NCBI RefSeq assembly: GCF_030403745.1
Contig: NZ_JAQMWP010000001.1
Location: 372,001 to 436,000, forward strand
Direction: 5' to 3'
Source of the DNA: Streptomyces sp. S.PB5
GTDB lineage: Bacteria; Actinomycetota; Actinomycetes; Streptomycetales; Streptomycetaceae
DNA length: 64,000 nt
Shown here: positions 8,509 through 62,161 of the stretch, one piece after another
Numbering within the stretch: the stretch's first letter is position 1
Layout of the letters: each line of letters opens with the position of its first letter
The notes under the pieces: model-generated
Database searches by the model: none
What the model was told of the DNA's origin: nothing
What the model saw: the letters and a program-made list of their open reading frames with translations, nothing else
Position numbers and translations under genes: made by a program

Positions 8509-8611
8509 CGTGGTCCCCCCTTGGCAGTTGATGCGGTCGTGGCACGTGGGAACGACCATAGGGCTTACCGCTGACAGCAAGGGATCGGTCAGGCCATCTG
8601 GGAGGGCAGGG

Positions 8612-8654
8612 CCACCGAGCCCGGGCGGTCGAGGAGGGACGCCCGGCTCGGTGG
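8612..8654 (-). terminator. Hairpin downstream of the DUF4246 gene
   Basis: Arms at 8612-8626 and 8641-8654 (CCACCGAGCC...GGGC against GCCCGGCTCGGTGG) pair almost perfectly, with one bulged C and a 14-nt loop. It starts 9 nt past the stop of the DUF4246 gene and before the GmrSD ribosome site. No T-run follows, as is usual in Streptomyces. It suggests that the two minus-strand genes are mostly separate transcripts. Confidence 0.6.
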
Positions 8655-8662
8655 TGGTGGGT

Positions 8663-33933: not shown

Positions 33934-35223
33934 TCACGCCTCCTTGCCGAACAGGGTGCTGCCCCACCAGTCGTCCTTGTCCCGGACGCCCGGCGGGACG
34001 GCGAACACCGCCGAACCCACGTGCTGGATGTACTCGTTGAGGGCGTCCGTGGCCAGGTTGCGCTGGATGCGGATGAAGCCCTCGCGGACGTCCTTCTGGT
34101 ACGCCAGGAAGAACAGCCCCGCCTCCAGCCGCCCGAGGCCGTCCGTGCCGTCGGTGAAGGAGTAGCCGCGGCGCAGGATCGTCGCCCCGTGGTTGGTCGT
34201 CGGGTGCGCGAGCCGGACGTGCGCGTCGGGCTTCATCGCCTTCAGGAACGGCTCGTCGCGCTCCTTGGCCTTGCCGACCGGGGCGCCCTCGCCCTTGTCA
34301 CGGCCGAAGATGTCCTCCTGCTCCTGGAGGGAGGTGCGGTCCCAGGTCTCGATGTGCATCCGGATGCGCCGGGCGACGAGATAGGAGCCGCCGACCATCC
34401 AGTCGGGCCCCGCCTTCTCGTCGACCCACACGAACTTCTTCAGCCGGTCCGGCTCGGTCCCCGCGATGTTGCGGGTGCCGTCCTTGAAGCCCATGAGGTT
34501 GCGCGGGGTCTGCTCCTCGGGCGTCGTGGAGGACGTCTTGCCGAAGCCGAGCTGCGACCACTTGATGACGACCTTGCCGAACCCGATGCGGGCGAGGTTG
34601 CGGATCGCGTGCACGGCGACCTGCGGATCGTCCGCGCAGGCCTGGACGCACAGGTCGCCGCCGCTGCGGTTCTTGTCCAGGGCGTCCCCGGCGAAGTGCG
34701 GCAACTCGACGAGCGCGTCGGGCTGTTGGCCCGCGAGGCCGAACTTCTGGAACAGGGAGGGCCCGAAGCCGATGGTGAGTGTGAGCCGCGAGGGCTTGAG
34801 TCCGAGGGCCTCACCGGTGTCGTCCGGCGGCGCCTCCGCCAGCCCTCCGAAGGCCCCCTCGCCGACGGCCTGGCCACCGGTCATCCGGCGGGCCGCGGCC
34901 GTCCAGTCCTTCAGCATCCGCACGAACTCGGCGCGGTCCTCGGTCTTCACGTCGAACGCGGCGAAGTGCAGCCGGTCCTGCACGGGCGTGGAGATACCGG
35001 CCTGATGGGCGCCGTGGAAGTCGACCGCGGCGCCCGCCTCGGCGGCGACGGTGTCGACGTCGTCACCGGCACGGGCCATCGCGACCGCGCCACCGGCCGC
35101 GACGGCGCCGAGCGCGAGCCCGGCCCCGCCCCAGCCGATGAGCGAACGCCGGGACGGAGCCTGCGGGTTCTCGGTCTGCGAGTTCTCGGTCCGCGGGTTC
35201 TCGGTCTGCGGGTTCTCGCTCAT
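33934..35223 (-). CDS. efeB: Deferrochelatase/DyP-type peroxidase, Tat-exported, 429 aa
   Basis: A Tat signal (SRRSLIGWGGAGLAL) follows a hydrophilic leader made of TENPQ-like repeats. NLMGFKDGTRN holds the GxxDG motif with the distal Asp, HPTTNHGATILRRGYSF the proximal region and Arg of dye-decolourising peroxidases. EfeB oxidises ferrous iron or extracts iron from heme outside the membrane, feeding EfeU. Start 35223 is 14 nt after the efeO stop. Confidence 0.95.
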   Translation of the reverse strand: MSENPQTENPRTENSQTENPQAPSRRSLIGWGGAGLALGAVAAGGAVAMARAGDDVDTVAAEAGAAVDFHGAHQAGISTPVQDRLHFAAFDVKTEDRAEFVRMLKDWTAAARRMTGGQAVGEGAFGGLAEAPPDDTGEALGLKPSRLTLTIGFGPSLFQKFGLAGQQPDALVELPHFAGDALDKNRSGGDLCVQACADDPQVAVHAIRNLARIGFGKVVIKWSQLGFGKTSSTTPEEQTPRNLMGFKDGTRNIAGTEPDRLKKFVWVDEKAGPDWMVGGSYLVARRIRMHIETWDRTSLQEQEDIFGRDKGEGAPVGKAKERDEPFLKAMKPDAHVRLAHPTTNHGATILRRGYSFTDGTDGLGRLEAGLFFLAYQKDVREGFIRIQRNLATDALNEYIQHVGSAVFAVPPGVRDKDDWWGSTLFGKEA

Positions 35224-36600: not shown

Positions 36601-37422
36601 TCAAAGCTTCCGTTCGGGGTTTACGAGCAGTGCGCCGGTCCGGGGGTGCGGGAACACCTCGACGGCCTGGTCGTACACCTCCGACAGCAGCGCCTGTTCG
36701 AAGACCTCCTCCGGCGCCCCGTCGGCGGCGACCCGCCCGGCACGCAGGATCGCCACCCGGTGCGCGTACGCGGCCGCGAGCCCCAAGTCATGCAGCACGA
36801 CGACGACGGCGTCCCCCGCGCGAGCCCGCTCCCGGCACACCTTCAGCACCAGCTCCTGATGCTTGAGATCGAGCGCCGCGGTCGGCTCGTCGAGCAGGAG
36901 CAGCGGGGCGCGCTGAGCAAGCACCCGGGCGAGCGCGACCCGGGCCCGCTCACCACCGCTGAGCGCGGAGAAGGGGCGGGACGCGAAGTCGACGACATCC
37001 GTCTGCCGCATCGCCTCGGCGACGGCCCGGTCGTCATCGTCGGGCGCGGTGGCCGCCCAGGGGGCCCGACCCATCCGTACGACGTCCTCGACGGTGAAGG
37101 GGAACGAGAGCGACGCGGACTGCGGCAACACGGCCCGCCGCAGCGCGAGCTCCGGCGCGGACCACTCCGCGGCGGGGCGGCCATGAATCCGTACGACTCC
37201 GCCGGCGGCCGGAATGTCAGCGGCGAGAGCCCCGAGAAGCGTCGACTTCCCGGCACCGTTGGGCCCGACGAGAGCGAGCACCTCACCGGCCCGGACGACG
37301 ACGGACACGCCGTCGAGGACATGCCGGGCGCCGAGCCGGACATGGAGCCCTTCGGCTTCGGCGAGCACGTCGCCGGGCTCGGCGGGTGCCGGGGGAGTGG
37401 GTCGGTTGCGGAGGAGTCTCAT
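36601..37422 (-). CDS. hmuV: Heme ABC transporter ATP-binding protein, 273 aa
   Basis: Walker A GPNGAGKSTLL, Q-loop LPQSASLSF, signature FSALSGGERARVALAR, Walker B LLLLDEPTAALD and the H-loop VVVVLHDLG are all present. FPFTVEDVVRMGR and AYAHRVAILRAG are typical of HmuV/FhuC-type heme and siderophore importers. ATG 37422 has AAGGA about 10 nt upstream. It is the third gene of hmuTUV, separated from hmuU by 299 bp containing a repeat. Confidence 0.92.
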   Translation of the reverse strand: MRLLRNRPTPPAPAEPGDVLAEAEGLHVRLGARHVLDGVSVVVRAGEVLALVGPNGAGKSTLLGALAADIPAAGGVVRIHGRPAAEWSAPELALRRAVLPQSASLSFPFTVEDVVRMGRAPWAATAPDDDDRAVAEAMRQTDVVDFASRPFSALSGGERARVALARVLAQRAPLLLLDEPTAALDLKHQELVLKVCRERARAGDAVVVVLHDLGLAAAYAHRVAILRAGRVAADGAPEEVFEQALLSEVYDQAVEVFPHPRTGALLVNPERKL

Positions 37423-37721
37423 GGCCTGGGTCCTTGGGCTGAAGGGTTGGGGAGGCGGCGGCACCGCCGGGGGCGGGGTGCGGGCCGAGCGCCGTTGCGG
37501 CGGGGAGAAGGGGCGGGCGGAATGAAAGGGACGTGGGGGAGGTGCGGGCGGTGGAAGGGAGGTGCGGGTCGAGAGGGAGGGTGGCTGAGGGGATGGGAGG
37601 GGCCGAGGCTGATGTCGGGCGGTGCGGGGGACTTCCTCAGGGGCGCGGGGCTGTGTCGATGTGCGGCTCCGCCGCGTGGGCGCGATCGGCCCCCACTCGC
37701 CCGCAGACGCCGTACAACCCC
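37423..37721. other. Gap inside the hmu gene set
   Basis: This 299-bp stretch between hmuU and hmuV holds G-rich direct repeats and, at 37637-37694, a Streptomyces-type palindromic element. No gene is supported. It interrupts an arrangement that is usually contiguous. Confidence 0.6.
37637..37694. repeat. Streptomyces-type palindromic repeat element
   Basis: The block begins TCAGGGGCGCGGGGCTGT and contains GCGGCTCCGCCGCGTGGGCG with a small GCGGC/GCCGC stem. From memory, near-identical blocks are scattered between genes across Streptomyces chromosomes. Here it lies between hmuU and hmuV. Confidence 0.65.
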
Positions 37722-38813
37722 CTACGCCCATCCCCCTTGCCGGCGTCGCGTCCGCCGCAGCAGCCAGAAGAAGAACGGACTCCCCAGCAGCGCCGTCAGC
37801 ACACCCAACGGCAACTCCGCCGGCGCCGCGACAGTTCGCGCAGCGAGATCCGCCGCCAACAACACCAGCGCCCCCAGCAGCGCACTGCCCGGCACCAGGA
37901 ACCGATGCCCCGGCCCCGCCACCATCCGCAGCAGGTGCGGCACCACCAGCCCCACGAAGCTGATGATCCCGGACACGCTCACCGCCGCCGCGGTCAGCAG
38001 CGCGATCACCAGCACCAGAACGATCCGCAGCCGCTCCACATCCACGCCGAGGTGCCGCGCCGGCCGCTCACCCAGCGACAGCAGATCCAGCCGCCGCGCA
38101 TACAACGGAGCCACCATCAGGCCCAGAGCCGCACACGGCAGCACCGCCAGCACCTTCGGCCAGGTCGCCTGAGCCAAGGACCCCAACTGCCAGAACGTGA
38201 TCTGGTTGACCGCCGCCGTGTCCGCGAAGAACAGGAACAGCCCGATCACCGCCCCCGCGAACGCGTTCACCGCGATGCCCGTCAGGATCAGCGTCACGAC
38301 CTCCGTACGCCCCCCGGACCGCGACATCGCGTACACCAGCAACACCGTGCCGAGCCCGGCGACGAACGCGAACGCCGAAACCGTCCACGTGCCAAGGAAG
38401 TTGATCCCGAACGCGATCGCCGCGACCGCCCCCACCGCCGCACCCGAGGACACACCGATGACCCCCGGCTCGGCCAGCGGGTTCCCGAACACGCCCTGCA
38501 TCAGCGCACCGGCACACCCGAGCGACGCCCCGACCAGCAACGCGAGCACGATCCGAGGGAACCGCACGTTCCACAGCACGGACTCCGCGACCCGGTCCAA
38601 CTCGCCGCCGCCGAGGCCGACCTGGTGCTGGACGGACCCCAGTACATCCCCGACCGGGATCGGATACGCCCCGATCCCCGCCGCCACCGGCACGAGGACG
38701 AGCAGCCCCGCCACCAGTCCGACGGTCAGCGCCCATCCGGTGGACCGCCGTCTCCGGGGCGGGCATTCGGCCCCGCCGCCCGTCTCGGTCGCGGTCTTCT
38801 CCAACACCGTCAC
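37722..38813 (-). CDS. hmuU: FecCD-family heme transporter permease, 363 aa
   Basis: About ten membrane helices. Family signatures are PRIVLALLVGASLGCAGALMQGVFGNPLAEP and GIISFVGLVVPHLLR, part of the coupling region that contacts the ATPase. GTG 38813 overlaps the hmuT stop by 4 bp (GTGA), showing co-translation. It imports heme delivered by HmuT. Confidence 0.94.
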   Translation of the reverse strand: MTVLEKTATETGGGAECPPRRRRSTGWALTVGLVAGLLVLVPVAAGIGAYPIPVGDVLGSVQHQVGLGGGELDRVAESVLWNVRFPRIVLALLVGASLGCAGALMQGVFGNPLAEPGVIGVSSGAAVGAVAAIAFGINFLGTWTVSAFAFVAGLGTVLLVYAMSRSGGRTEVVTLILTGIAVNAFAGAVIGLFLFFADTAAVNQITFWQLGSLAQATWPKVLAVLPCAALGLMVAPLYARRLDLLSLGERPARHLGVDVERLRIVLVLVIALLTAAAVSVSGIISFVGLVVPHLLRMVAGPGHRFLVPGSALLGALVLLAADLAARTVAAPAELPLGVLTALLGSPFFFWLLRRTRRRQGGWA

Positions 38814-41519: not shown

Positions 41520-43019
41520 ATGCCCGTCAGATCCCCTCGCCGCTCCCTCGCCCTCGCGGCCGCCGTCGCCACCGCGGCCGCCGTCGGTACCACCGCGCTC
41601 GCCGTGGCCGGTGCGACCAGCGCGTCGGCGGCCGAAGTACCGCTCAGCGGCTACGAGTTGACCTGGGGCATCAAGCAGTCGTACCGCACGTACGTGACCG
41701 GCATGGCGGCCGGCGCCTTCACCGCCACGGACGGCGCCTCGCAGGCCGCGGACAACGGAGCCTTCACCTTCACCGACGGCACCGGCACCTACGACTCCAC
41801 CGCGCACACCGTCGACCTCGGCTTCAAGGGCAGCCTGAAGATCGAGTCGACCCTGCACCGCTTCGAGATCACCCTGTCCGACGTGAAGTTCGACAGCGCG
41901 GCGGCCGAGATCACCGCGGACGTGACGAAGTCCGGTACGACCACGCAGGACGTCCCGCTCGCCGATGTCACGGTCACCCAGGCCATGTCGGCCATGGAGA
42001 CCAGGCTGACCGAGGAGGCCGCGGACGTCTTCGGCAGCGCGAGCTACGAGGGTGCGGCGGGCGACCCGCTGACGGTGGCCAAGGTGGCGCAGTCCCAGTC
42101 GCCGAGCCCGTCCGCCTCCGCGTCGGAGTCGACTTCCCCGAGCCCGTCGCCCTCGGCCTCGGCCTCGGCCTCGGCGTCCGCGTCGGCTTCGCAGAGCGCG
42201 AGCCCGTCCGCGTCGGCCTCGGCCTCGACGTCGCAGAGCGCGTCGCCCTCCGCCACCACCCCGGCCCCCGCGAAGGGCGACATAGCCGACGGCACGCTCG
42301 GGTGGGGCGTGAAGGAGTCCTTCCGTACGTACGTCGTCGACGGCGTCGCCAAGGGCGAGATCACGGCGTCCGGCGGCGCGACCCAGGCCGCGGACAACGG
42401 GATCTTCACCTTCGTCAAGGCGACGGGCGAGTACGACACCGACGCCGACACGCTCTCCGCCGCCTTCCAGGGCTCGGTCAACTTCAAGGGCCACGAGGAG
42501 AACGGCGAGTACGGCCTCGACCTGACCCTGTCCGACGTCAGGGCGACCCTCGACGAGGGCGCGGGCAGGCTGACGGCGGACGTGACGAGCCTGGGCGAGA
42601 AGTCGCAGGACGTGGTCCTGGCGGACCTGAAGGCGGTGAAGTCCGACCTGACGGCGACGGACGACGTCATCACGGTGAACGACGTGGCGGCCACCCTGAC
42701 CGAGGCCGGAGCGGAGGCCTTCGGCGGCTTCTACACCGCGGGCACGGAGCTGGACCCGGTCGACCTGGCCGTGGCGTTGACGGACGACGCGACCCTTCCG
42801 GACGACGACTCCAACGGCACGAGCGGCCCGTCCGCCACGGCGACCAACTCCGGCACGACGGGCGGCACGACCGGCTCGACCACCGGCGGCGTCACGGGCG
42901 GCCTCGCCAACACCGGTTCGGACGTACCGGCGGGCGCGCTGGGCACGGCGGCCGCGGTGACGGTGGCGGCGGGCGCGGGGGTCGTATTCGCGATGCGCCG
43001 TCGTCGTACGGAGGCGTAG
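41520..43019 (+). CDS. HtaA-domain protein with LANTG cell-wall sorting signal, 499 aa
   Basis: AAGGAG precedes ATG 41520. The signal peptide ends SASAAE. Two HtaA domains start at ELTWGIKQSYRTYV and TLGWGVKESFRTYV, separated by a Ser/Ala/Pro-rich linker (about 195-255). The C-terminus has LANTGSDVP, a hydrophobic helix and MRRRRTEA, a class E sortase signal (LAxTG). This copy is therefore likely to be wall-linked, whereas the upstream copy is membrane-linked, giving a wall-to-membrane heme relay (inference). Confidence 0.94.
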   Translation: MPVRSPRRSLALAAAVATAAAVGTTALAVAGATSASAAEVPLSGYELTWGIKQSYRTYVTGMAAGAFTATDGASQAADNGAFTFTDGTGTYDSTAHTVDLGFKGSLKIESTLHRFEITLSDVKFDSAAAEITADVTKSGTTTQDVPLADVTVTQAMSAMETRLTEEAADVFGSASYEGAAGDPLTVAKVAQSQSPSPSASASESTSPSPSPSASASASASASASQSASPSASASASTSQSASPSATTPAPAKGDIADGTLGWGVKESFRTYVVDGVAKGEITASGGATQAADNGIFTFVKATGEYDTDADTLSAAFQGSVNFKGHEENGEYGLDLTLSDVRATLDEGAGRLTADVTSLGEKSQDVVLADLKAVKSDLTATDDVITVNDVAATLTEAGAEAFGGFYTAGTELDPVDLAVALTDDATLPDDDSNGTSGPSATATNSGTTGGTTGSTTGGVTGGLANTGSDVPAGALGTAAAVTVAAGAGVVFAMRRRRTEA

Positions 43020-52356: not shown

Positions 52357-55300
52357 ATGGATCCCGTGCGCTATCGCATCCTCGGCACCACCCAGGTACT
52401 CCGTCCCGACGGCACCCCGCTCCCCGTGGGCGGGGCGCGGCTGCGTGCCCTGCTGACCGTGCTCGCGCTGCGGCCCGGCCGTACGGTCGCGGTGAGTCTG
52501 CTGGTCGACGAGGTGTGGGACGGCGACCCGCCCGCCGACGCGGCGGGCGCGCTGCAGGCCCTGGTGGGCCGGCTCAGACGGGCCCTCGGCGCGGACGCGG
52601 TCGCCTCGGCGGACGGCGGCTACCGGCTCGCCGCCGCGCCGGACGACATCGACCTGCACCGCTTCGAGCGGCTCACCGGTGAGGGCACGCGCGCGTTGCA
52701 CAACGGCGACCCCGCGAAGGCGGCCGGTGTCCTCGACGACGCCCTCGCCCTGTGGCGCAGCCCGGCCCTCGCCGACCTGCCCGACCGCACCGCCGAGGCG
52801 GCCCGCTGGGAGGCCCGGCGCCTCGACGCCCTGCGCGCCCGCCACACCGCCGCCCTCGCCCTGGGCCACGCCGAACAGTCCCTGCCCGAACTGACCGCCC
52901 TCTGCGACACCCACCCCCTCGACGAACCCCTCCAGTCCCTGCGCCTTCGCGCCCTGCGCGACGCGGGCCGCACCGCCGAGGCCCTGGCGGCCTACGAGGA
53001 GGTACGACGGCTGCTGGCCGACCGGCTGGGAGCGGACCCGGGTCCCGAACTGCGGGTGCTGCACGGGGAGTTGCTGAGCCCTCGGGGCCGAGGTAACGGC
53101 TTCGGCGCCTCCGAGGGCGAGCTCCGCCCCGCAGCCGGCGCGCCCCTGAACGGCCGGGACCGGTACCGGTACCGGGACCGGGACCTCGGACAGACCTGGG
53201 CCGGGGGAGCCGGGATCTCCGAGGACGGTGCCATCACGCCTCCCCCCGGTGCCCGCGCCGCCGTCGCCGCAGAAACCCCCGCCCCTGCCTCCCCCACACC
53301 TCACTCCGACGCCCCACCCCCCGCTCTCGGCAACCTCCGCGCCCGTCTCACCTCCTTCGTCGGCCGGGAGTCCGACATCGAGGCCATCCGGGGCGACCTC
53401 GCGACCGCCCGGCTCGTGACCCTGCTCGGGCCCGGGGGCGCGGGCAAGACCAGGCTGTCGCAGGAGGCGGCCGAGACGGTGCGGCACACCGCGCGGGACG
53501 GGGTGTGGCTGGCCGAACTCGCTCCGGTCGACGAGCCGGACGGGGTGCCGGAGGCGGTGCTCACCGCCGTCGGGGCGCGGGAGACCGTGCTGTACGGCGC
53601 GGGCGCGGAGGCGATGCGGGCCGCGAACGAACGGCACGCCGACCCCGTGGAGCGGCTCGCGGAGCACTGCGGCAACCGCCGGATGCTGCTGATCCTCGAC
53701 AACTGCGAGCATGTCGTCGAGGCCGCCGCCCGGCTCGCGGCGGAGCTGCTGGCACGCTGCCCGCAGCTCACGGTACTGGCCACCAGCCGCGAACCCCTCG
53801 GCGTGCCGGGGGAGTTGCTGCGACCCGTGGAGCCGCTGCCGGAGCCCGTCGCGCTGCGGCTGCTGGCCGATCGCGGGGCCGCGGCCCGGCCAGGGTTCAC
53901 GGTCGAGGCAGACGATGAGACCGCTGCGGCGTGCGCGGAGGTCTGCCGGCGGCTCGACGGTCTCCCCCTCGCCATCGAGCTCGCGGCCGCCCGGCTACGG
54001 ATGCTGACGCCGCGTCAGATCGCGGACCGGCTCGACGACCGATTCCGGCTGCTCACCTCCGGCAGCCGTACCGTCCTGCCCCGCCAGCAGACCCTGCGGG
54101 CCGTCGTCGACTGGTCCTGGGAACTGCTCGACGAGGACGAACGGGACGTGCTGCGGCGGCTGTCGGTCTTCGCGGGCGGCTGCGAACTCGCCGCCGCCGA
54201 GGCCGTCTGCGGGCCCCTCGCGCTGGAGGCGCTGGGCTCACTCGTCGACAAGTCCCTTGTCGTCGCCGCCCCTTCGGACGACGGCGGGATGCGCTACCGG
54301 CTCCTGGAGACCGTCGGCGAGTACGCGAGCGAGCGGCTCGACGAGACCGGGCTGCGGAAAGCGGCCGAGCGCGCGCATCTGACGTACTACCGCGAACTCG
54401 CCCGCACCACCGACCCGTTGCTGCGCGGCCCGCACCAACTGGCCGCCGTCGGCCGGCTGGAGCGCGAGTACGAGAATCTGCGCACCGCCCTGCGGCACGC
54501 CATCGCCGAAGGCGACGAGCAGGAGGCGCTCTGCCTGGGGCTGTCACTGGCCTGGTACTGGCAGATCCGCGACGTCCGCATCGAGGCCCGCAACTGGTAC
54601 GCCGAGATCATGGCCCTCGGCCCCGACCCGTTCACCGAACCGGTGCGCCGCGCCGCCCCGGTCCACCAGCGCAGCACCGACACACCGCCCCCGCTGACCG
54701 GCGAGGCCCTCATCGAGGCCCGGCGCGGGATCCACCTCGCCCATCTGGCCTGCATGGACACCGAGTTGGAGGCCTGGGAGACCCCGGAGGCCAAGGCCAA
54801 GCTGCACACCATCACCCAGGTCTACGAGCCCGGGCTGCCGCAGGTCTGCCGTCCCCCGGGCCTGCTCTGGTTCTACGCCGTGATGCTGAGCGGAGGAGTG
54901 GAGCGGCTGGCCGGGATCCTCGACGCCGCCGTCGACACCTGCCGCAGGACACCCGGTATGGAGTGGGAGCTCGCCGGCACCCTCCAGATCCGCGCCAACA
55001 TCCTCGCCAACCGGGCCGACTGGGCGGGCGACGCGGCCCGCGACGCCGACGAGGCGCTGGAGCTCTTCCAGACCCTGGGGGACGCCTGGGGCACCGCGGA
55101 GGCGCTCTCCGCGCGCGGCGAGGCCCGGGAGCGTTCGGGCGCCTATCTGGACGCCGCCGCCGACTACGAGGCGGCGATGGAGCAGGCCGACCGGCTCGGC
55201 GCCCGCGCCCAGAACGCCGTGCTCAAGGCCCGGCTCGGCAGCGCGCTCATGGAGGCGGGCCAAGGAGAGCGGGCCGAACGGATCCTGCGCGAGGTGATCG

Positions 55301-55839
55301 ACCGGCGGGACGGCGCGGGCAGCAACGAGGCCACGCCCGCCGCCCGGATGTTCCTCGCCGGACATCTCGCCATGACCGGCCGGACCGTGGAGGCGCGCGA
55401 GCAACTGCGGTTGCTGCGCGAGTGCTTCGCGATCGCCCACTTCGTCGTCTTCGATGCCTTCATCCTCGGCTCGGAGGCCTGGCTGGAGGCGATGGACGGC
55501 TGCTACGAGGCCTGTCTGGACAAGTCCCGGCTGGCTCTGGCCAGGGCCGACGACCCGCTGTCCGAGGCCATCGCCCCGTTCATGCTGCCCCTGTACCTGG
55601 CCATCGCGGCGATCGCGCTGGCCGCGGTGGACGACGGGGCCCGGGCCCGGGACGCCGCCCGCGTCCTCGGCGCCGCCCGCGCCGCGCTGCCGCCCGGCCA
55701 TGTGGCGACGTCCATCGAACGCGAGGCGTTCGGCCGTGCCGAGCGGCACGCGCGGGCCGCACTCGGCGACGAGGCCTACGAGGCCGCGTACACGGAGGGC
55801 GGCGCCCTCTCCCCCCGGGAGGCCGCCGCCCTGGTCTGA
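52357..55839 (+). CDS. SARP/AfsR-type regulator: winged helix, BTAD, NB-ARC, TPR; 1160 aa
   Basis: Residues about 1-95 are the OmpR-like winged helix (VRYRILGTTQVLRPDG, LVDEVWDGDPP) and 100-245 the BTAD domain (DLHRFERLTGEG, LADRLGADPGPEL). After a Pro-rich linker, LLGPGGAGKTRLSQEA (about 357) and LLILDNCEHVVEAAA form the NB-ARC ATPase. TPR-like helices fill about 700-1140. AfsR-type proteins activate secondary-metabolism or transporter genes by binding heptamer direct repeats. A convergent ABC exporter 35 bp beyond has such repeats in its promoter. Confidence 0.95.
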   Translation: MDPVRYRILGTTQVLRPDGTPLPVGGARLRALLTVLALRPGRTVAVSLLVDEVWDGDPPADAAGALQALVGRLRRALGADAVASADGGYRLAAAPDDIDLHRFERLTGEGTRALHNGDPAKAAGVLDDALALWRSPALADLPDRTAEAARWEARRLDALRARHTAALALGHAEQSLPELTALCDTHPLDEPLQSLRLRALRDAGRTAEALAAYEEVRRLLADRLGADPGPELRVLHGELLSPRGRGNGFGASEGELRPAAGAPLNGRDRYRYRDRDLGQTWAGGAGISEDGAITPPPGARAAVAAETPAPASPTPHSDAPPPALGNLRARLTSFVGRESDIEAIRGDLATARLVTLLGPGGAGKTRLSQEAAETVRHTARDGVWLAELAPVDEPDGVPEAVLTAVGARETVLYGAGAEAMRAANERHADPVERLAEHCGNRRMLLILDNCEHVVEAAARLAAELLARCPQLTVLATSREPLGVPGELLRPVEPLPEPVALRLLADRGAAARPGFTVEADDETAAACAEVCRRLDGLPLAIELAAARLRMLTPRQIADRLDDRFRLLTSGSRTVLPRQQTLRAVVDWSWELLDEDERDVLRRLSVFAGGCELAAAEAVCGPLALEALGSLVDKSLVVAAPSDDGGMRYRLLETVGEYASERLDETGLRKAAERAHLTYYRELARTTDPLLRGPHQLAAVGRLEREYENLRTALRHAIAEGDEQEALCLGLSLAWYWQIRDVRIEARNWYAEIMALGPDPFTEPVRRAAPVHQRSTDTPPPLTGEALIEARRGIHLAHLACMDTELEAWETPEAKAKLHTITQVYEPGLPQVCRPPGLLWFYAVMLSGGVERLAGILDAAVDTCRRTPGMEWELAGTLQIRANILANRADWAGDAARDADEALELFQTLGDAWGTAEALSARGEARERSGAYLDAAADYEAAMEQADRLGARAQNAVLKARLGSALMEAGQGERAERILREVIDRRDGAGSNEATPAARMFLAGHLAMTGRTVEAREQLRLLRECFAIAHFVVFDAFILGSEAWLEAMDGCYEACLDKSRLALARADDPLSEAIAPFMLPLYLAIAAIALAAVDDGARARDAARVLGAARAALPPGHVATSIEREAFGRAERHARAALGDEAYEAAYTEGGALSPREAAALV

Positions 55840-55874: not shown

Positions 55875-56705
55875 TCAGCTCTTGGACTTGAACTTGTGGA
55901 TCGCGACCGGCGCCATGACCGCCGTGATCGCCACCGACCAGCCGAGCGTCACCCACAGGTCGTGCGCGACCGGACCGCCCACCATCAGTCCGCGCGCCGC
56001 GTCGGCGAGCGTGGACAGCGGGTTGTAGTCGGTGAACGCCTGCAGCCAGCCCGGCATGGAGTTCGTCGGCGCGAAGATCGACGAACCGAACTGCAGCGGG
56101 AACAGCACCAGGAAGCCCATCCCCTGCACGGCCTGCGCGCTCTTCATGACCACGCCCAGGGTGAGGAACACCCACATGATCGACGAGGCGAACGCCGTGG
56201 ACAGGGCGATCGTGGCGAGCAGCCCGCCCCAGTTGGTGATGTCGAACCCGACCAGGACGGAGACGATCATCAGCAGGGCGGTCGCGAACAGCATCCGCAT
56301 CAGCTCGACCGAGATCTTCGCGAAGAGCACCGAGCCGCGCCCGATCGGCAGCGACCGGAACCGGTCCATGACACCGGAGTTGAAGTCCTGGCTGAACCCG
56401 GTACCGACGCCCTGCGACAGCGTCATGCTCATCATCGCGATCATGCCGGGGATCACGTACTGCACGTACTGGTCCTGACCACCGCCCAGCGCCTGTCCGA
56501 TCGAGCCGCCGAAGACGTACACGAACAACAGGGTGAAGATGACCGGCATCAGCACGGCGTCGGCCATCGACTCCGGGTCCTGCCGGATCCACAGCAGATT
56601 GCGGCGGATGAGGGCACCGGTGTGCCGCAGATGCCCGCGCAGCGGGATCCGGACGTCGTCGACGGTGGAGACGGGGGCGGTGGGGGTGACGGTGGCGGCG
56701 CTCAT
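55875..56705 (-). CDS. ABC-2 type exporter permease, DrrB-like, 276 aa
   Basis: Six helices with MADAVLMPVIFTLLFVYVFGG and SGVMDRFRSLPIGRGS (ABC-2 signature loop) and a C-terminal HKFKSKS. ATG 56705 overlaps the ATPase stop (ATGA), so the pair is co-translated. Together they form a DrrAB-type drug exporter. The gene converges with the SARP gene. Confidence 0.94.
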   Translation of the reverse strand: MSAATVTPTAPVSTVDDVRIPLRGHLRHTGALIRRNLLWIRQDPESMADAVLMPVIFTLLFVYVFGGSIGQALGGGQDQYVQYVIPGMIAMMSMTLSQGVGTGFSQDFNSGVMDRFRSLPIGRGSVLFAKISVELMRMLFATALLMIVSVLVGFDITNWGGLLATIALSTAFASSIMWVFLTLGVVMKSAQAVQGMGFLVLFPLQFGSSIFAPTNSMPGWLQAFTDYNPLSTLADAARGLMVGGPVAHDLWVTLGWSVAITAVMAPVAIHKFKSKS

Positions 56706-57727
56706 ACGGCGACCTCCTCGCGGTCGTCGGCCGGTACGGCGTCCTGCGGGGCGCTCGCTCGGTGGCCGGTGAGGGACAGGAACACCTCGTCCAGGCTGGG
56801 GAGTTCGGTGGTGATGGAGGAGATCGTGATGCCGCGCGCGGTGACCGCGCCGACCACTGCGGTCAGCTGCTCGTCGCTGAGGATCGGCACGAGCAGGGAG
56901 CCGGCGTCGGTGTCCACGGTCGTGGTGGCGATGCCGGTGATGCCGAGGTCGTCGAGGTGGGAGGCGAGCGGGCGCAGCTGCAGCGGGTCCACGGGCCGGA
57001 CCCGCAGGGCGCGGCCGCCGACCTTCGCCTTCAGCTCCTCGATCCCGCCGCCCGCGATGACCTTCCCGCGGTCGACGACGGTCAGCTCGTCGGCGAGCTG
57101 CTCGGCCTCCTCCATGTACTGCGTGGTGAGCAGGACGGTGACGCCGTCCCCGACCATCCGCTTGACCTCGTCCCACACCTCGTTGCGGGTGCGGGGGTCG
57201 AGCCCGGTGGTCGGTTCGTCGAGGAAGAGGACGGCGGGGCTGCCGATCATGGAGGCGGCGAGGTCGAGCCGCCGCCGCATACCGCCGGAGTACGTGCTCG
57301 CCGGGCGCCGGGCGGCGTCGGTGAGCGAGAACCGCTCCAGCAGCTCGTCGGCCCTGCGGCGGGCCTCCTTGCGGGGCAGGTCGAGCAGCCGCCCGATCAG
57401 GTACAGGTTCTCCCAGCCGGGGAGCTTCTCGTCCACGGAGGCGTACTGCCCGGTGAGTCCGATGACCTTCCTGAGCTGGCGGGGCTGCCGTACGACGTCG
57501 TAGCCGGCGACGGTGGCCTGTCCGGCGTCGGGTGCCAGCAGGGTGGACAGGATGCGGACCAGGGTGGTCTTTCCGGCGCCGTTCGGCCCGAGAACACCCA
57601 TCACGGTGCCCTCCCGCACATCCAGGTCCACACCGTCGAGCGCCTTCGTCTCGCCGTAGTGCTTCACCAGCCCCCGCACGGTCACGGCGATGTCTGCGCC
57701 GATGGGGTTCTTGTCGATTCGCGTCAT
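56702..57727 (-). CDS. ABC exporter ATPase, DrrA-like, 341 aa
   Basis: Walker A GPNGAGKTTLV, signature YSGGMRRRLDLA, Walker B VLFLDEPTTGLD, then the DrrA-type C-terminal region (SLDEVFLSLTGHRA). ATG 57727 lies 7 nt after a CACCGT -10 and has no ribosome site, so it appears leaderless. Four heptamer repeats lie immediately upstream. Substrate unknown. Confidence 0.95.
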   Translation of the reverse strand: MTRIDKNPIGADIAVTVRGLVKHYGETKALDGVDLDVREGTVMGVLGPNGAGKTTLVRILSTLLAPDAGQATVAGYDVVRQPRQLRKVIGLTGQYASVDEKLPGWENLYLIGRLLDLPRKEARRRADELLERFSLTDAARRPASTYSGGMRRRLDLAASMIGSPAVLFLDEPTTGLDPRTRNEVWDEVKRMVGDGVTVLLTTQYMEEAEQLADELTVVDRGKVIAGGGIEELKAKVGGRALRVRPVDPLQLRPLASHLDDLGITGIATTTVDTDAGSLLVPILSDEQLTAVVGAVTARGITISSITTELPSLDEVFLSLTGHRASAPQDAVPADDREEVAV

Positions 57728-57734
57728 GGGCAAG

Positions 57735-57740
57735 ACGGTG
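57735..57740 (-). promoter_or_regulatory. -10 box for the DrrAB-like operon
   Basis: CACCGT on the minus strand, 9 bp downstream of the nearest heptamer and 7 nt upstream of ATG 57727. No good -35 is visible, as expected for a SARP-activated promoter. Confidence 0.55.
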
Positions 57741-57749
57741 TCAGGGCCC

Positions 57750-57798
57750 ACCGACAAACGACCGACAGGCCACCGACAGCCGTACTGCGCCACCGACA
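57750..57798 (-). promoter_or_regulatory. SARP-type heptamer direct repeats
   Basis: TGTCGGT occurs on the minus strand at 57798-57792, 57778-57772, 57767-57761 and 57756-57750. The last three start exactly 11 bp apart; the first is 20 bp further. SARP proteins bind heptamers with 11-bp (one helical turn) spacing ending about 8 bp before the -10. The SARP gene lies at 52357, so it is the likely activator. Confidence 0.75.
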
Positions 57799-57815
57799 AA
57801 CCCCCGACGAACGGC

Positions 57816-57853
57816 AGCAGCCCCGTCGGCGGGGGAAGATCGACGGGGCTGCT
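57816..57853 (-). terminator. panB terminator hairpin
   Basis: A perfect 13-bp stem (AGCAGCCCCGTCG at 57816-57828 with its complement at 57841-57853) begins 17 nt past the panB stop and precedes the ABC promoter. Confidence 0.75.
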
Positions 57854-57870: not shown

Positions 57871-58746
57871 CTAGTGGACGCTGTGCTCCTCCAGCGGGAA
57901 GGTGCCTCCCACCACGTCCTCCGCGAACGCCTTCGCCGCGTTGCCCATGACCTCACGGAGATTGGCGTACTGCTTCACGAACTTCGGGACCCGGCCGCCC
58001 GTGAGCCCCAGCATGTCGGTCCACACCAGTACCTGCGCGTCCGTCTCCGCGCCGGCGCCGATGCCGACCGTCGGGATGTGCAGGGTGCGGGTGACCTCGG
58101 CCGCCAGCTCGGCGGGGACCAGCTCCAGGACGACCGCGAAGGCGCCCGCGTCCTGGACGGCCTTCGCGTCGCGCAGCAGCTGCGCGGCCGCCTCCTCGCC
58201 GCGCCCCTGGACGCGGTAGCCCATGGCGTTCACGGACTGCGGGGTGAGGCCGATGTGGGCCATGACCGGGATGCCGGCCTCGACCAGGAGCCGGATCTGG
58301 TCGTAGGAGCGCTCGCCGCCCTCCAGCTTGACGGCGCCGACCCCGGCGTCCTTGATCAGCCGGGTCGCGGAGCGGAGGGCCTGTACCGGGCCCTCCTGGT
58401 ACGAACCGAAGGGGAGGTCGCCGACGATCAGGGCGCGGGAGGTGCCGCGGACGACCGCCGCCGAGAGCATCGTCATCTGGTCGAGGGTGACGGGCACGGT
58501 CGACTCGTACCCGAGGTGGCAGTTGCCCGCGGAGTCGCCGACGAGCATGACCGGGATGCCGGCCTCGTCGAAGACGGACGCGGTCATCGCGTCGTACGCG
58601 GTGAGCATGGGCCACTTCTCGCCCCGCTCCTTGGCGAGGGCGATGTCGCGAACAGTGATACGGCGTGTGCCCTTCCCCCCGTACAGCGCCTTGCTGCCGT
58701 CGGAGGGCCTGTTCTGAACAGTCTGGGCAGCCGAAAGCTGCGTCAT
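57871..58746 (-). CDS. panB: 3-methyl-2-oxobutanoate hydroxymethyltransferase, 291 aa
   Basis: MLTAYDAMTASVFDEAGIPVMLVGDSAGN, PVTLDQM, ALIVGDLPFGSY and VKLEGGE match PanB metal and substrate residues; VGIGAGAETDAQVLVWTDMLG is the C-terminal signature. It makes ketopantoate for pantothenate and coenzyme A. ATG 58746. Transcribed alone, with a hairpin terminator after it. Confidence 0.97.
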   Translation of the reverse strand: MTQLSAAQTVQNRPSDGSKALYGGKGTRRITVRDIALAKERGEKWPMLTAYDAMTASVFDEAGIPVMLVGDSAGNCHLGYESTVPVTLDQMTMLSAAVVRGTSRALIVGDLPFGSYQEGPVQALRSATRLIKDAGVGAVKLEGGERSYDQIRLLVEAGIPVMAHIGLTPQSVNAMGYRVQGRGEEAAAQLLRDAKAVQDAGAFAVVLELVPAELAAEVTRTLHIPTVGIGAGAETDAQVLVWTDMLGLTGGRVPKFVKQYANLREVMGNAAKAFAEDVVGGTFPLEEHSVH

Positions 58747-58950: not shown

Positions 58951-58973
58951 CGATACGAGACGGTGCCGTATCG
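58951..58973. promoter_or_regulatory. Operator candidate at the DHA2 exporter promoter
   Basis: CGATACG (58951-58957) and CGTATCG (58967-58973) form a 7-bp inverted repeat with partly symmetric centre, overlapping the expected -35 of a promoter whose -10 TAGGGT is at 58983-58988. The TetR gene at 61514 is a natural candidate to bind here. Confidence 0.7.
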
Positions 58974-58982
58974 AAATAGGGC

Positions 58983-58988
58983 TAGGGT
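58983..58988 (+). promoter_or_regulatory. -10 box for the leaderless DHA2 exporter transcript
   Basis: TAGGGT ends 7 nt before ATG 58996, with no ribosome site between. Confidence 0.6.
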
Positions 58989-58995
58989 CGGACGT

Positions 58996-60606
58996 ATGAC
59001 TTCTCCTGCCGACCCTGCCCTCGCCGGCTCCCGCGTTCCGGAAGCCGTGCACAGGCGCCGCTGGGCGATCCTCGGCGTGCTGATGCTGAGCCTGCTGATC
59101 GTGGTGCTCGACAACTCGATCCTCAATGTCGCGATCAAGACGATCTCGACCCCCGCCCCGACCGGTCTGGGCGCCACCCAGAGCGAGCTGGAGTGGGCGA
59201 TCAACGCCTACACGCTCGTCTTCGCGGGACTGCTGTTCTCCGCCGGTCTCCTCGGTGACCGGCTCGGGCGGAAGAGGGTGCTGCTCGGCGGGCTCGTCGT
59301 GTTCGGCATCGGGTCCGCGCTCGCCGCGTCCTCCGGATCGCCGGGGGAGCTGATCGCGTTCCGCGCGGTGATGGGGCTCGGGGCCGCCTTCGTGATGCCC
59401 GCCACCCTCGCCGTGCTCATGAACGTCTTCGAGCGTGAGGAGCAGCCCAAGGCCATCGGGATCTGGGCGGGTGGCGTCGGGCTCGCCATCGCCATCGGAC
59501 CGATCACCGGCGGGGTGCTGCTGGACCACTTCTGGTGGGGGTCCGTCTTCCTGATCAACGTGCCGATCGTGCTGATCGCGCTGGCGCTGATGGTGTGGCT
59601 GGTGCCCGACTCGCGGGACCCGCGCCCCGGCCGTATCGACCCGATCGGTGTCGTGCTGTCCGTGGTCGGCCTGGTGCTGCTGGTCTACGGCATCATCAAG
59701 GGCGGCCAGCTCGCGGACTTCACGGACGCGACCGTGCTGGCGACGATCGGCGCCGGGCTCGCCGTGCTCGTCGCGTTCGTGGTCTTCGAGGCGCGCAGCG
59801 ACCATCCGTCCATCGACGTCATGTACTTCAAGAACAAGGTGTTCTCCGCCGCGATCGCCGCCATCGCGCTGGTCTTCTTCGCGCTGATGGGTGTGACCTT
59901 CTTCTCGGTGTTCTACACCCAGAGCGTGCGCGGGTACTCGCCGCTGCAGACCGGTCTGCTGATGTTGCCGCTGGCCGCCGCGCAGATGATCTTCGCGCCG
60001 CGGGCCCGGCTGCTCGTCGACCGGTTCGGGAACAAGGCCACCACCACGGCCGGGCTGCTCGTCATCGCCGCGACGCTCGCCGCGTTCGCCGGGTTCGAGT
60101 CGGACACGCCGATCTGGATGCTGGAGGTCGTCTTCTTCCTCATGGGCACCGGGATGGCGCACATCATGACCCCGGTCAGTGTCGTCATCATGCAGGCCCT
60201 GCCCCGCGAGAAGGCCGGCTCCGCCTCCGCGCTCAGCAACACCTTCCGCCAGGTCGGCGGCGCCCTCGGTATCGCCATCCTCGGCTCGGTCCTCTCCACC
60301 GCCTACCGCAACGGCATCGAGGACAAGCTCGGCCTGCTCCCGGCCGGCGCCCGCCACACCGCGGGCGAGTCCATCGAGGCCACCCTCGGTGTCGCGGAGA
60401 AGCTGGGCCCCCAGGGCAAGGCCCTCATCGCCCCGGCCCACGACGCCTTCCTGCACGCCATGCACACCACCGCCCTGTGGGGCGCGGGCATCGCGGTGAT
60501 CGGCGCGATCGTGTGCGCACTGTTCCTGCCCGGCAAGGCACCGGCCGCCGACAAGGACACGGGGGAGCGGGAGTTGGTGACGGCGGAGTCCGGGACGGGG
60601 GAGTGA
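58996..60606 (+). CDS. DHA2-family MFS drug exporter, 536 aa
   Basis: Fourteen predicted helices. [24 protein letters not shown] is the DHA2 motif D1, [14 protein letters not shown] motif A and [24 protein letters not shown] motif C of antiporters. It probably exports drugs in exchange for protons. Leaderless ATG 58996 with a palindromic operator at -35. A TetR gene follows after a 0.9-kb repeat region. Confidence 0.95.
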
Positions 60607-61513
60607 GGGACGGCGCGGGGGCGTATCCGGCGCGGTCGCGGAGATACATCCGGCACGTGACGCGGAGCGCACCCCGGACAAGCCGCGGGTCGCATGCGAC
60701 GCGGGCCACGGGGACACCCCGTCCGGGCCGGGCAAGTTCTACGGGTCGCAATCCGGCGCGGGCCGCGGGGACACCACCCCGCACAGACCGCGGGTCGCAT
60801 CCGCCGCGGTTCGCGCGACGCTTCCCGGGCGGGGCGCGGGACACATCCCGGACGGCCCGGGCACGCCCTGCACGGTCCGGGCCCGCTCCCGCCCGCGCGG
60901 CGGGCGCACCCCCGGGTTCCCGGGTCCGCCCCCGCCCAGCGGAGACACGTGCGGCGTCGGCCGCGGAGATGCATCCGGCACGGGCTGCGGGGCGCATCCG
61001 GGGCGGCCCGGGCACGCCCCTGCACGGGGCCGCGGAACATGCCCCGCACGGGCCGGGCACGCCTCGCACGGGCTGCGGGCTGCATCCGGCGCGGGCCGGG
61101 GCGCATCCGGGGCGGTTCGCGGAGCGCATCCCGGGCGGGCCGCGGAGGGGTACGCGCCGCGGACACACCCCGCGGGTTCTCGGGCCCCCCGCCGTGCGGG
61201 GAGACGTGCGGCGTCGGCCGCGGAGATGTATCGGGCACGGGGTGCGGGGCGCATGCGACGCGGGCCGCGGGGACACCCCGTCCGGGCCGCGGAGCACACC
61301 CCCGACGGGCTGGGCGCGCCTCGCACGGGCTGCGGGCCGCATCCCGGGCGGGCCGGGGAGGGGTACGCCCCGCGCGGGCCGGGCCCGAACCGCACGGGCC
61401 GGGCTCGCCCCCGCCCACGCCGCGGGTACACCCCGCGCCCTGTCCCGCCCCGGGCCCGCTCTCGCCCATGCCCGGGGGAGAATCCCCCCAGGACGAAGAA
61501 GGGATCCACCGAC
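60607..61513. repeat. Degenerate GC-rich repeat region between exporter and TetR genes
   Basis: About 0.9 kb composed of diverged copies of units such as GCGGGTCGCATCCGGCGCGG and GCGGGGACACCCCGTCCGGG. Larger blocks recur: GTGCGGCGTCGGCCGCGGAG at about 60950 and 61207, and GCGACGCGGGCCxCGGGGACAC at about 60697 and 61256. Several frames on both strands stay open because of composition, and none has a ribosome site, family motif or normal codon pattern, so no protein is called. Confidence 0.8.
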
Positions 61514-62161
61514 GTGAACAGCCTCGCCGAAGGCAACTCCCCGCAGGCGGGACCCGTGCGGGGCCGTCCCCGCAGTGAGGCCGTGGAGCGGGCCATTGTC
61601 GAGGGGGTGATGAAGCTGCTGGAGGAGGGGGTGCCGCTGGCGGAGCTGTCCATCGAGCGGATCGCCCGTACCGCGGGGGTGGGGAAGGCGACCATCTACC
61701 GGCGCTGGCGGGGCAAGGAGGAACTGTTCGTCGACGTCATCCGCAGCGCCGAGCCCCCGGACCTCGAACTGCCCGGCACCTCCCTGCGCGACGACCTCGT
61801 CGTCTTCCTGGAGTCGATGCGGCAGCGCGGCCTGGTCAGACGTTCCTCGGTGATCCTGCACAACGTGCACGCCCAGATGAAGAGCAGCCCGAAGATCTGG
61901 GAGGCGTACGACAACCTCGTCATCGCACCGCGGCGGCGGCTCGGCGTGGAGGTGTTGCGCCGAGGGCAGTTGAACGGTGAACTGCGCGCGGACATCGACG
62001 TCGACCTGCTCAACGACATCTTCATCGGCCCCATGCTGCTGCGTACCGTCATGCGCCCGGACGCCGACCTCCACGAGGGTCTGCCCGAGGAGATCGTCGA
62101 TGTGCTGCTCCAAGGCCTACGGCCCGTCAGCTCACCGTCCGTCAGTTCGACGAGTCCGTAG
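61514..62161 (+). CDS. TetR/AcrR family regulator, 215 aa
   Basis: The helix-turn-helix is at about 25-75 (AIVEGVMKLLEEGVPLAELS, then IARTAGVGKATIYRRWRGKE). The C-terminal part fits the TetR_C_11-like fold. GTG 61514 has AAGGGAT about 12 nt upstream. Proximity to the DHA2 exporter and its palindromic operator suggests that it represses that gene. Confidence 0.93.
   Translation: MNSLAEGNSPQAGPVRGRPRSEAVERAIVEGVMKLLEEGVPLAELSIERIARTAGVGKATIYRRWRGKEELFVDVIRSAEPPDLELPGTSLRDDLVVFLESMRQRGLVRRSSVILHNVHAQMKSSPKIWEAYDNLVIAPRRRLGVEVLRRGQLNGELRADIDVDLLNDIFIGPMLLRTVMRPDADLHEGLPEEIVDVLLQGLRPVSSPSVSSTSP

What the first reader, a model, noticed from the sequence alone, without database searches (positions are those of the whole stretch)
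57735..57798. SARP heptamer repeats in a leaderless ABC exporter promoter next to a SARP gene
Four TGTCGGT heptamers, three at exact 11-bp spacing, end 9 bp before a -10 CACCGT that is 7 nt before ATG. This is the textbook arrangement for SARP activation, and a 1160-aa SARP-NB-ARC-TPR gene is convergent with the exporter. It defines a likely regulator-target pair without any biosynthetic genes nearby.
Basis: partly seen in the sequence, partly recalled or inferred. Interest (0 to 1): 0.75.

Follow-up and report, generated by a model that had tools for sequence, protein, structure and literature searches.

The report
SARP switch for a detox regulon
In Streptomyces, phased DNA repeats sit in front of a predicted drug-exporter operon that neighbours a large SARP regulator gene, and the same repeats recur before flavin-monooxygenase and reductase genes across the genus, so the regulator likely switches on a drug-defence set rather than antibiotic production.

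Summary
In detail: four TGTCGGT heptamers (plus a degenerate fifth) on the minus strand, three at exact 11-bp pitch, ending 9 bp before CACCGT, which is 7 nt before the ATG of a DrrA-type ATPase gene. In 154 Streptomyces-type exporter promoters, 144 keep three or more boxes in 11-bp phase, and the start codon usually follows the -10 by 6-7 nt. The convergent large SARP adjoins 135 of 138 exporter orthologues in a 150-genome sample.

Of 118 composite sites in those genomes (5 for the reversed control), 36 lie elsewhere: 20 precede FAD monooxygenases (13 Tet(X)-like, 6 rifampin-monooxygenase-like, 1 other) and 7 precede one short-chain dehydrogenase. A matrix trained on exporter promoters alone scores 27/30 Tet(X)-like and 26/30 dehydrogenase orthologues, 0/20 of a paralogue clade. 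In this genome the second site precedes the Tet(X)-like gene; the repeats led to no biosynthetic cluster.

Best reading: the SARP activates a dispersed detoxification regulon. Binding, activation, signal and defence role are inferred. Five exporters (G145, four in another genus) lack an adjacent SARP yet keep boxes or remnants, so another SARP as reader is not excluded.

The parts
57803..57809 (-). degenerate box CGTCGGG, 11 bp upstream of the first full heptamer
57792..57798 (-). heptamer TGTCGGT, 20 bp from the next (out of phase)
57772..57778 (-). heptamer TGTCGGT (box 3)
   Evidence: box 3 conserved
57761..57767 (-). heptamer TGTCGGT (box 2), 11 bp from box 3
   Evidence: box 2 conserved
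57750..57756 (-). heptamer TGTCGGT (box 1, proximal), 11 bp from box 2
   Evidence: box 1 conserved
57735..57743 (-). extended -10: TGA then CACCGT (57740-57735)
   Evidence: TG and the final T conserved in 154 aligned promoters
56702..57727 (-). exporter ATPase gene, 341 aa, DrrA-type, predicted leaderless
   Evidence: TIGR01188 405 bits vs cut-off 312
55875..56705 (-). exporter permease gene, 276 aa, ABC-2 type, overlapping the ATPase stop by ATGA
52357..55839 (+). large SARP gene, 1160 aa: winged helix, BTAD, STAND-type NTPase, weak TPR; likely reader of the array
   Evidence: adjacent to 135 of 138 exporter orthologues
57871..58746 (-). panB (ketopantoate hydroxymethyltransferase), upstream neighbour, not part of the pair

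Best explanation
The array before the ATPase gene is a set of phased TGTMGGY repeats to which the convergently encoded large SARP likely binds, recruiting RNA polymerase by predicted sigma adaptation to a predicted leaderless DrrAB-type exporter operon. Shown: the repeats, their 11-bp pitch, their fixed distance to a weak extended -10, their conservation, and the same composite site before Tet(X)-like and rifampin-monooxygenase-like flavin monooxygenases and a short-chain dehydrogenase in many Streptomyces genomes.
For: SARP adjacent to 135 of 138 exporter orthologues. Three or more boxes in exact 11-bp phase in 144 of 154 exporter promoters, with conserved extended -10; start 6-7 nt after the -10 in 137 of 153. 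Geometry matches the published SARP rule: repeats 11 or 22 bp apart, the last 8 bp from a weak -10, CACTGT in afsS (PMC10936776). 118 composite sites vs 5 control in 150 genomes; of the 36 away from the exporter, 20 precede FAD monooxygenases and 7 one dehydrogenase. Matrix trained on exporters only: 27/30 Tet(X)-like (18 of the 21 not already known from the pattern), 26/30 dehydrogenase orthologues, 0/60 antisense, 0/20 paralogues. ATPase passes the DrrA cut-off. Residue aligned with AfsR R92 is Arg in 133/133 orthologues and its contact base T is at least 95% in boxes 1-3.
Against: No binding or expression data. Five exporter loci lack an adjacent SARP: G145, with an intact array (score 40.3), and four of eight loci of genus g3, scoring -1.8, -0.5, 14.4 and 14.0. 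The recognition helix is shared with a paralogous SARP. The SARP gene's own upstream region carries no array. Only 4 of the next 20 Tet(X)-like genes and 6 of 30 rifampin-type genes carry the site. No target enzyme passes a resistance-family cut-off, and their nearest solved relatives include biosynthetic enzymes. Box 1 resembles the RecA-NDp element.
Confidence: 0.62

Rival explanations
1. Another SARP (AfsR, a paralogue, or a relocated orthologue) reads the array, and the adjacent SARP has a different job or shares the sites.
For: Five exporter loci keep boxes or remnants without an adjacent SARP. The recognition helix QALVxRLRR is nearly the same in a paralogous SARP.
Against: 135 of 138 adjacency in the genus sample. 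The four paralogue loci read carry no array. AfsR Thr88 aligns with Ala in 133/133 orthologues, which fits a different heptamer.
Confidence: 0.2
2. The regulon serves endogenous aromatic or secondary metabolism: the exporter and flavoenzymes tailor and export the strain's own products, so this is a dispersed biosynthetic regulon.
For: The nearest solved relatives of the two flavoenzymes include biosynthetic ones: AbsH3 for the first, PgaE/CabE among the best for the second. SARPs are known activators of biosynthesis (PMC10972967, passages).
Against: Exporter, SARP and array are nearly genus-wide while the enzyme genes vary between genomes. In this genome the Tet(X)-like gene lies between an aminotransferase and an alpha/beta hydrolase gene; no synthase among the four neighbouring frames scanned.
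Confidence: 0.15
3. The proximal box is a RecA-NDp/PafBC element and the exporter belongs to the DNA-damage response.
For: Box 1 is usually tTGTCRGTgg with 8 nt to the -10, close to TTGTCRGTG-N8-TAnnnT (consensus recalled), and both classes have leaderless-type starts.
Against: 0 of 154 exporter promoters has TAnnnT. The 46 RecA-NDp-type sites of this genome (control 1) are a separate set. Tandem phased boxes and the non-exporter sites are not explained.
Confidence: 0.04

Closest known systems
AfsR and the afsS promoter (S. coelicolor)
   Same: Winged helix-BTAD-STAND-TPR plan; 11-bp phased repeats shortly before a weak -10 (CACTGT there, CACCGT here)
   Different: Not AfsR (183 vs 1430 bits); different heptamer; Ala where AfsR has Thr88; exporter and enzyme genes as targets instead of afsS
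Cluster-situated large SARPs (PolY, RslR3; from PMC10972967, passages)
   Same: Large SARP with NTPase and TPR part, heptameric direct repeats as sites
   Different: Those sit in biosynthetic clusters; this one sits beside an exporter, with dispersed targets
DrrAB / OtrC-type drug exporters
   Same: ATPase passes the DrrA subfamily cut-off and is close to Otr(C) (405 and 401 bits)
   Different: Otr(C) cut-off of 750 not reached; permease only weakly DrrB-like; not in a producer's cluster here
RecA-NDp/PafBC promoters
   Same: Leaderless-type start, similar proximal box, 8 nt to the -10, sigma adaptation
   Different: Single box and TAnnnT there; phased array and no TAnnnT here

Membership tests
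SARP (large type) | N-terminal winged helix (Trans_reg_C) and BTAD | tested here: met
   29.9 vs 26.2 and 137.1 vs 22.1 bits
SARP (large type) | central STAND/NOD NTPase | tested here: met
   AAA_22 27.5 vs 27 bits; AAA_16 and nSTAND1 below cut-off; no NB-ARC match
SARP (large type) | C-terminal TPR | tested here: inconclusive
   TPR_16 21.2 vs cut-off 32.7
SARP operator | direct repeats 11 or 22 bp apart, last one about 8 bp from the -10 | tested here: met
   11-bp pitch; 9 bp from a 7-bp box, 8 bp if the unit is 8 bp
SARP operator | binding by a SARP and activation | not testable with these tools
   needs footprinting and transcription assays
AfsR orthologue | NCBIfam AfsR equivalog cut-off | tested here: not met
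   183 vs 1430 bits
DrrA subfamily (ATPase) | TIGR01188 cut-off | tested here: met
   405.4 vs 312.45 bits
DrrB subfamily (permease) | TIGR01247 cut-off | tested here: not met
   53.6 vs 223.05 bits
Tet(X) (second target in this genome) | NF033111 cut-off | tested here: not met
   126.2 vs 750 bits
Rifampin monooxygenase (target in other genomes) | NF033145 cut-off | tested here: not met
   361.3 vs 800 bits
RecA-NDp/PafBC promoter | TAnnnT -10 at 8 nt after TTGTCRGTG (consensus recalled) | tested here: not met
   0 of 154 exporter promoters

The most novel reading that the evidence does not exclude
A nearly genus-wide STAND-type SARP is an intracellular sensor of toxic natural products that switches on a dispersed drug-defence regulon (exporter, flavin monooxygenases, reductase): a SARP whose primary output is resistance rather than biosynthesis.
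Probability: 0.5. Interest if true: 0.8.

Novelty: new variant of a known kind. Interest (0 to 1): 0.63.

Why it matters
SARPs are known as activators of antibiotic biosynthesis clusters. If a conserved, non-cluster SARP runs a drug-defence regulon in most Streptomyces, its code (TGTMGGY boxes at 11-bp pitch plus an extended -10) becomes a way to find uncharacterised drug-modifying enzymes and exporters in any Streptomyces genome, and it gives a STAND sensor whose signal can be sought directly.

Tried and rejected
Search for a linked metabolite cluster through the repeats: nothing found. Exact TGTCGGT pairs occur only at the exporter; the TGTMGGY pair gave one more site, inside a transporter-like coding frame. 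The composite with up to 3 mismatches gave 26 sites vs 32 for the control in this genome, so most are chance; only the exporter and the Tet(X)-like gene show clear arrays. Three single-box sites with an ATG 6 nt after the -10 (L236, L247, L249) remain unexplained.

SARP autoregulation: no array in the upstream 200 bp of 63 SARP genes read, nor in the window's; isolated heptamer-like strings in 4 of 63.

Co-loss test: 12 of 150 genomes have no ATPase match stronger than 1e-110 (G030, G037, G043, G047, G050, G057, G079, G105, G113, G120, G121, G135). Eleven have no composite site and no Tet(X)-like match at 1e-80. G079 has a site, the SARP and a disrupted ATPase; G057 has remnants; G047 has a 50% SARP relative. 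Genome size and phylogeny confound this, and the loci without an adjacent SARP keep boxes or remnants, so co-loss is not shown.

Heptamer-helix covariation: the two g3 loci with TGTCAGC boxes and an adjacent SARP (L425, L426) alone have Thr at position 71, which aligns with AfsR S91, a backbone contact. Two related loci; not counted as evidence.

Rows dropped: from the 154 promoters L061 (ATPase start off the contig), L038 (short promoter) and L192 (no ATPase). L068 was mis-anchored by its projected start and left out of the matrix; its array is present (48.5). The permease query was out of frame and was corrected.

Literature: searches aimed at this SARP, heptamer or regulon showed no report of it. 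Searches had 147 and 765 papers, of which only 20 and 10 were listed; the library holds open-licence papers only. The locus name SCO2259 is recalled; it gave 0 papers.

Full report
Observation. Minus-strand TGTCGGT heptamers at 57792-57798, 57772-57778, 57761-57767 and 57750-57756 are real. The last three are spaced exactly 11 bp, the first is 20 bp from the second, and a degenerate CGTCGGG lies at 57803-57809. CACCGT follows the last box after 9 nt, preceded by TGA (an extended -10), and ATG 57727 follows after 7 nt. The triple did not arise in 200 first-order Markov windows, and exact pairs occur only here in the 10.85-Mb genome.

Genes. The ATPase (56702-57727) passes the DrrA subfamily cut-off (405 vs 312 bits) and scores 401 bits on Otr(C), below that cut-off of 750. 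The permease (55875-56705) overlaps it by ATGA and is only weakly DrrB-like. The convergent gene 52357-55839 encodes a winged helix, a BTAD, a STAND-type NTPase (AAA_22 just above its cut-off; no NB-ARC match) and a weak TPR. Its nearest solved structures are AfsR entries, but it is not AfsR (183 vs 1430 bits). Upstream lies panB. Of 18 further frames of the window scanned, none matched a biosynthetic synthase family; several of those frames are probably not genes, and the rest of the window was not scanned.

Conservation of the exporter promoter. All 80 named Streptomyces loci found with the SARP keep the ATPase convergent to it; they were chosen by the SARP, so this is no test by itself. In a sample of 150 Streptomyces genomes, 138 have an ATPase orthologue (best E at or below 1.4e-144; the other 12 weaker than 1e-110). 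I fetched the surroundings of 74 of the 138: the SARP is convergent in 71. Two of the other three stretches end at a contig end; the third (G145) has no SARP in 8.5 kb downstream, a stretch with runs of N, nor in the flanks fetched later. For the other 64, one search lists a SARP hit on the same contig within about 6 kb (compared by eye). So 135 of 138 are adjacent. Aligned on box 1, 154 exporter promoters show three or more boxes in exact 11-bp phase in 144 (107 with three, 37 with more), two boxes in 9; the one with a single box was mis-anchored and has its array. Boxes 2 and 3 read TGTMGGY. Box 1 reads TGTCRGY, is preceded by T in 73%, and is followed by TG at +13/+14 and a T at +21. The projected start is 6 or 7 nt after the -10 in 137 of 153, so a leaderless start is a conserved prediction.

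Fit to SARP sites. Published SARP sites have repeats 11 or 22 bp apart, the last one 8 bp from the -10; afsS has a weak CACTGT -10; on it, sigma region 4 sits on the AfsR protomers instead of the -35 element (PMC10936776, passages and section 7). In AfsR, R92 contacts the third base (T) of the repeat. The aligned residue is Arg in 133 of 133 orthologues, and that base is T in at least 95% at boxes 1-3. AfsR T88, which contacts the fifth position, aligns with Ala in 133 of 133, which agrees with a different heptamer. The residue alignment is mine.

The regulon. The composite TGTMGGY-N4-TGTMGGY-N6-TGNCANNNT with up to one mismatch gave 118 matches in 150 genomes (91 genomes), against 5 for the reversed pattern. 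By coordinates, 82 lie at the exporter, one of them at the disrupted copy of G079. I fetched all 36 others. Thirteen precede one Tet(X)-like FAD monooxygenase, six a rifampin-monooxygenase-like FAD monooxygenase, one a further FAD monooxygenase, seven one short-chain dehydrogenase, three an alpha/beta hydrolase, a GDSL hydrolase and a DUF4440 protein, and six other genes or none within reach. One member of each named class was scanned with Pfam; the others were assigned by eye from their N-termini. In this genome the second site (G000:C45:429727, one mismatch) precedes the Tet(X)-like gene.

Independent check. A matrix trained on 153 exporter promoters alone was applied to upstream regions of orthologues picked by protein similarity. 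Scores of 10 or more: 27 of the 30 best Tet(X)-like genes, the query included (0 of 30 antisense). Nine of the 30 were already known from the pattern, so 18 of 21 others. Further down the list: 4 of 20 chosen at 64-80% identity, 0 of 20 in a clade at 55-61%, and 6 of 1000 random 250-bp windows drawn from loci that themselves hold exporter promoters. Dehydrogenase orthologues: 26 of 30, the other four at 7.1-9.3, 0 of 30 antisense; rifampin-type relatives: 6 of 30, namely five of the six closest and one further. In the 80 named loci (2.47 million strand-bases) one hit lay outside exporter promoters. The upstream regions of three of the 30 Tet(X)-like genes score low; two of these (L300, L319) hold TTCCA-type inverted repeats seen by eye, perhaps other control.

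What the targets are. The Tet(X)-like protein scores 126 bits on Tet(X), far below the cut-off of 750; its nearest solved relative is AbsH3. The second flavoprotein scores 361 bits on rifampin monooxygenase (cut-off 800); its nearest solved relative is a rifampin monooxygenase, followed by oxygenases of polyketide pathways. None passes a resistance-family cut-off, so drug inactivation is inferred from kinship and from the company of a DrrA-type exporter. In this genome an aminotransferase and an alpha/beta hydrolase gene flank the Tet(X)-like gene, and no synthase was found in the four frames scanned.

Mechanism. Most likely the SARP, switched by its NTPase/TPR part on a toxic signal, binds the phased boxes as side-by-side protomers, takes the place of the -35 contact and drives the weak -10. 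Binding, activation, signal and defence role are inferred.

Results against. Outside Streptomyces the exporter is family-wide (13 of 17 genera of the family sample, its own included, at 1e-110). Of the non-Streptomyces genomes I read 18 loci, from four genera, among the rows listed. Fourteen have the adjacent SARP and score 6.5 to 34.6 (12 of 14 at 10 or more); four of eight g3 loci lack it and score -1.8, -0.5, 14.4 and 14.0. Two of these four (L423, L424) still show phased TGTCAGC boxes, so another or a relocated SARP may act there. G145 keeps a strong array (40.3) without the SARP. The recognition helix is shared with a paralogous SARP, whose four loci carry no array. Box 1 resembles the RecA-NDp element; sites of that type form a separate set of 46 here (control 1), and among the 30 fetched I recognised recA, uvrA, uvrB and radA by eye; none of 154 exporters has their TAnnnT.

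Known or new. The passages seen (PMC10972967, PMC12224297; PMC10936776 with section 7) treat SARPs as activators of biosynthesis. The searches named under Tried and rejected showed no report of this regulon, within their listing limits. I call it a new variant of a known kind. Confidence in the best explanation is set at 0.62, mainly because of the five exporters without an adjacent SARP and the missing binding data.

Noticed in passing
G000 (own genome), 46 sites; loci L260-L289: TTGTCRGTG-N8-TAnnnT (RecA-NDp/PafBC type, consensus recalled) occurs 46 times vs 1 control; many have an ATG or GTG 6-7 nt downstream, and recA, uvrA, uvrB and radA are among the genes recognised by eye.
   Followed up: partly
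L423-L426 (genus g3): In this genus the heptamer has shifted to TGTCAGC in several exporter promoters, and four of eight loci lack the adjacent SARP.
   Followed up: partly
L203 / L367 (G033 contig 42): The Tet(X)-like gene and a rifampin-monooxygenase-like gene lie head to tail about 50 bp apart behind one array, apparently one operon.
   Followed up: no
L300, L319: Tet(X)-like genes without the array have TTCCA-type inverted repeats upstream, seen by eye, perhaps control by another regulator.
   Followed up: no
L236, L247, L249 (own genome): Single heptamer-like box, weak -10 and ATG 6 nt downstream, without a tandem array; function unknown.
   Followed up: no
window 57816-57853: Inverted repeat AGCAGCCCCGTC/GACGGGGCTGCT between panB and the array, seen by eye; no T run, and the terminator scan did not report it.
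   Followed up: no
window 58963-60606 (+) and 61226-62161 (+): An MFS transporter frame and a TetR-family frame lie beyond panB.
   Followed up: no
window 5932-8772 (-): GmrSD-type (type IV) restriction endonuclease, both Pfam halves matched.
   Followed up: no
window 33934-35223 (-) and 41520-43019 (+): Dyp-type peroxidase and an HtaA haem-domain protein, with an ABC ATPase at 36601-37731 (-), suggesting an iron/haem region.
   Followed up: no
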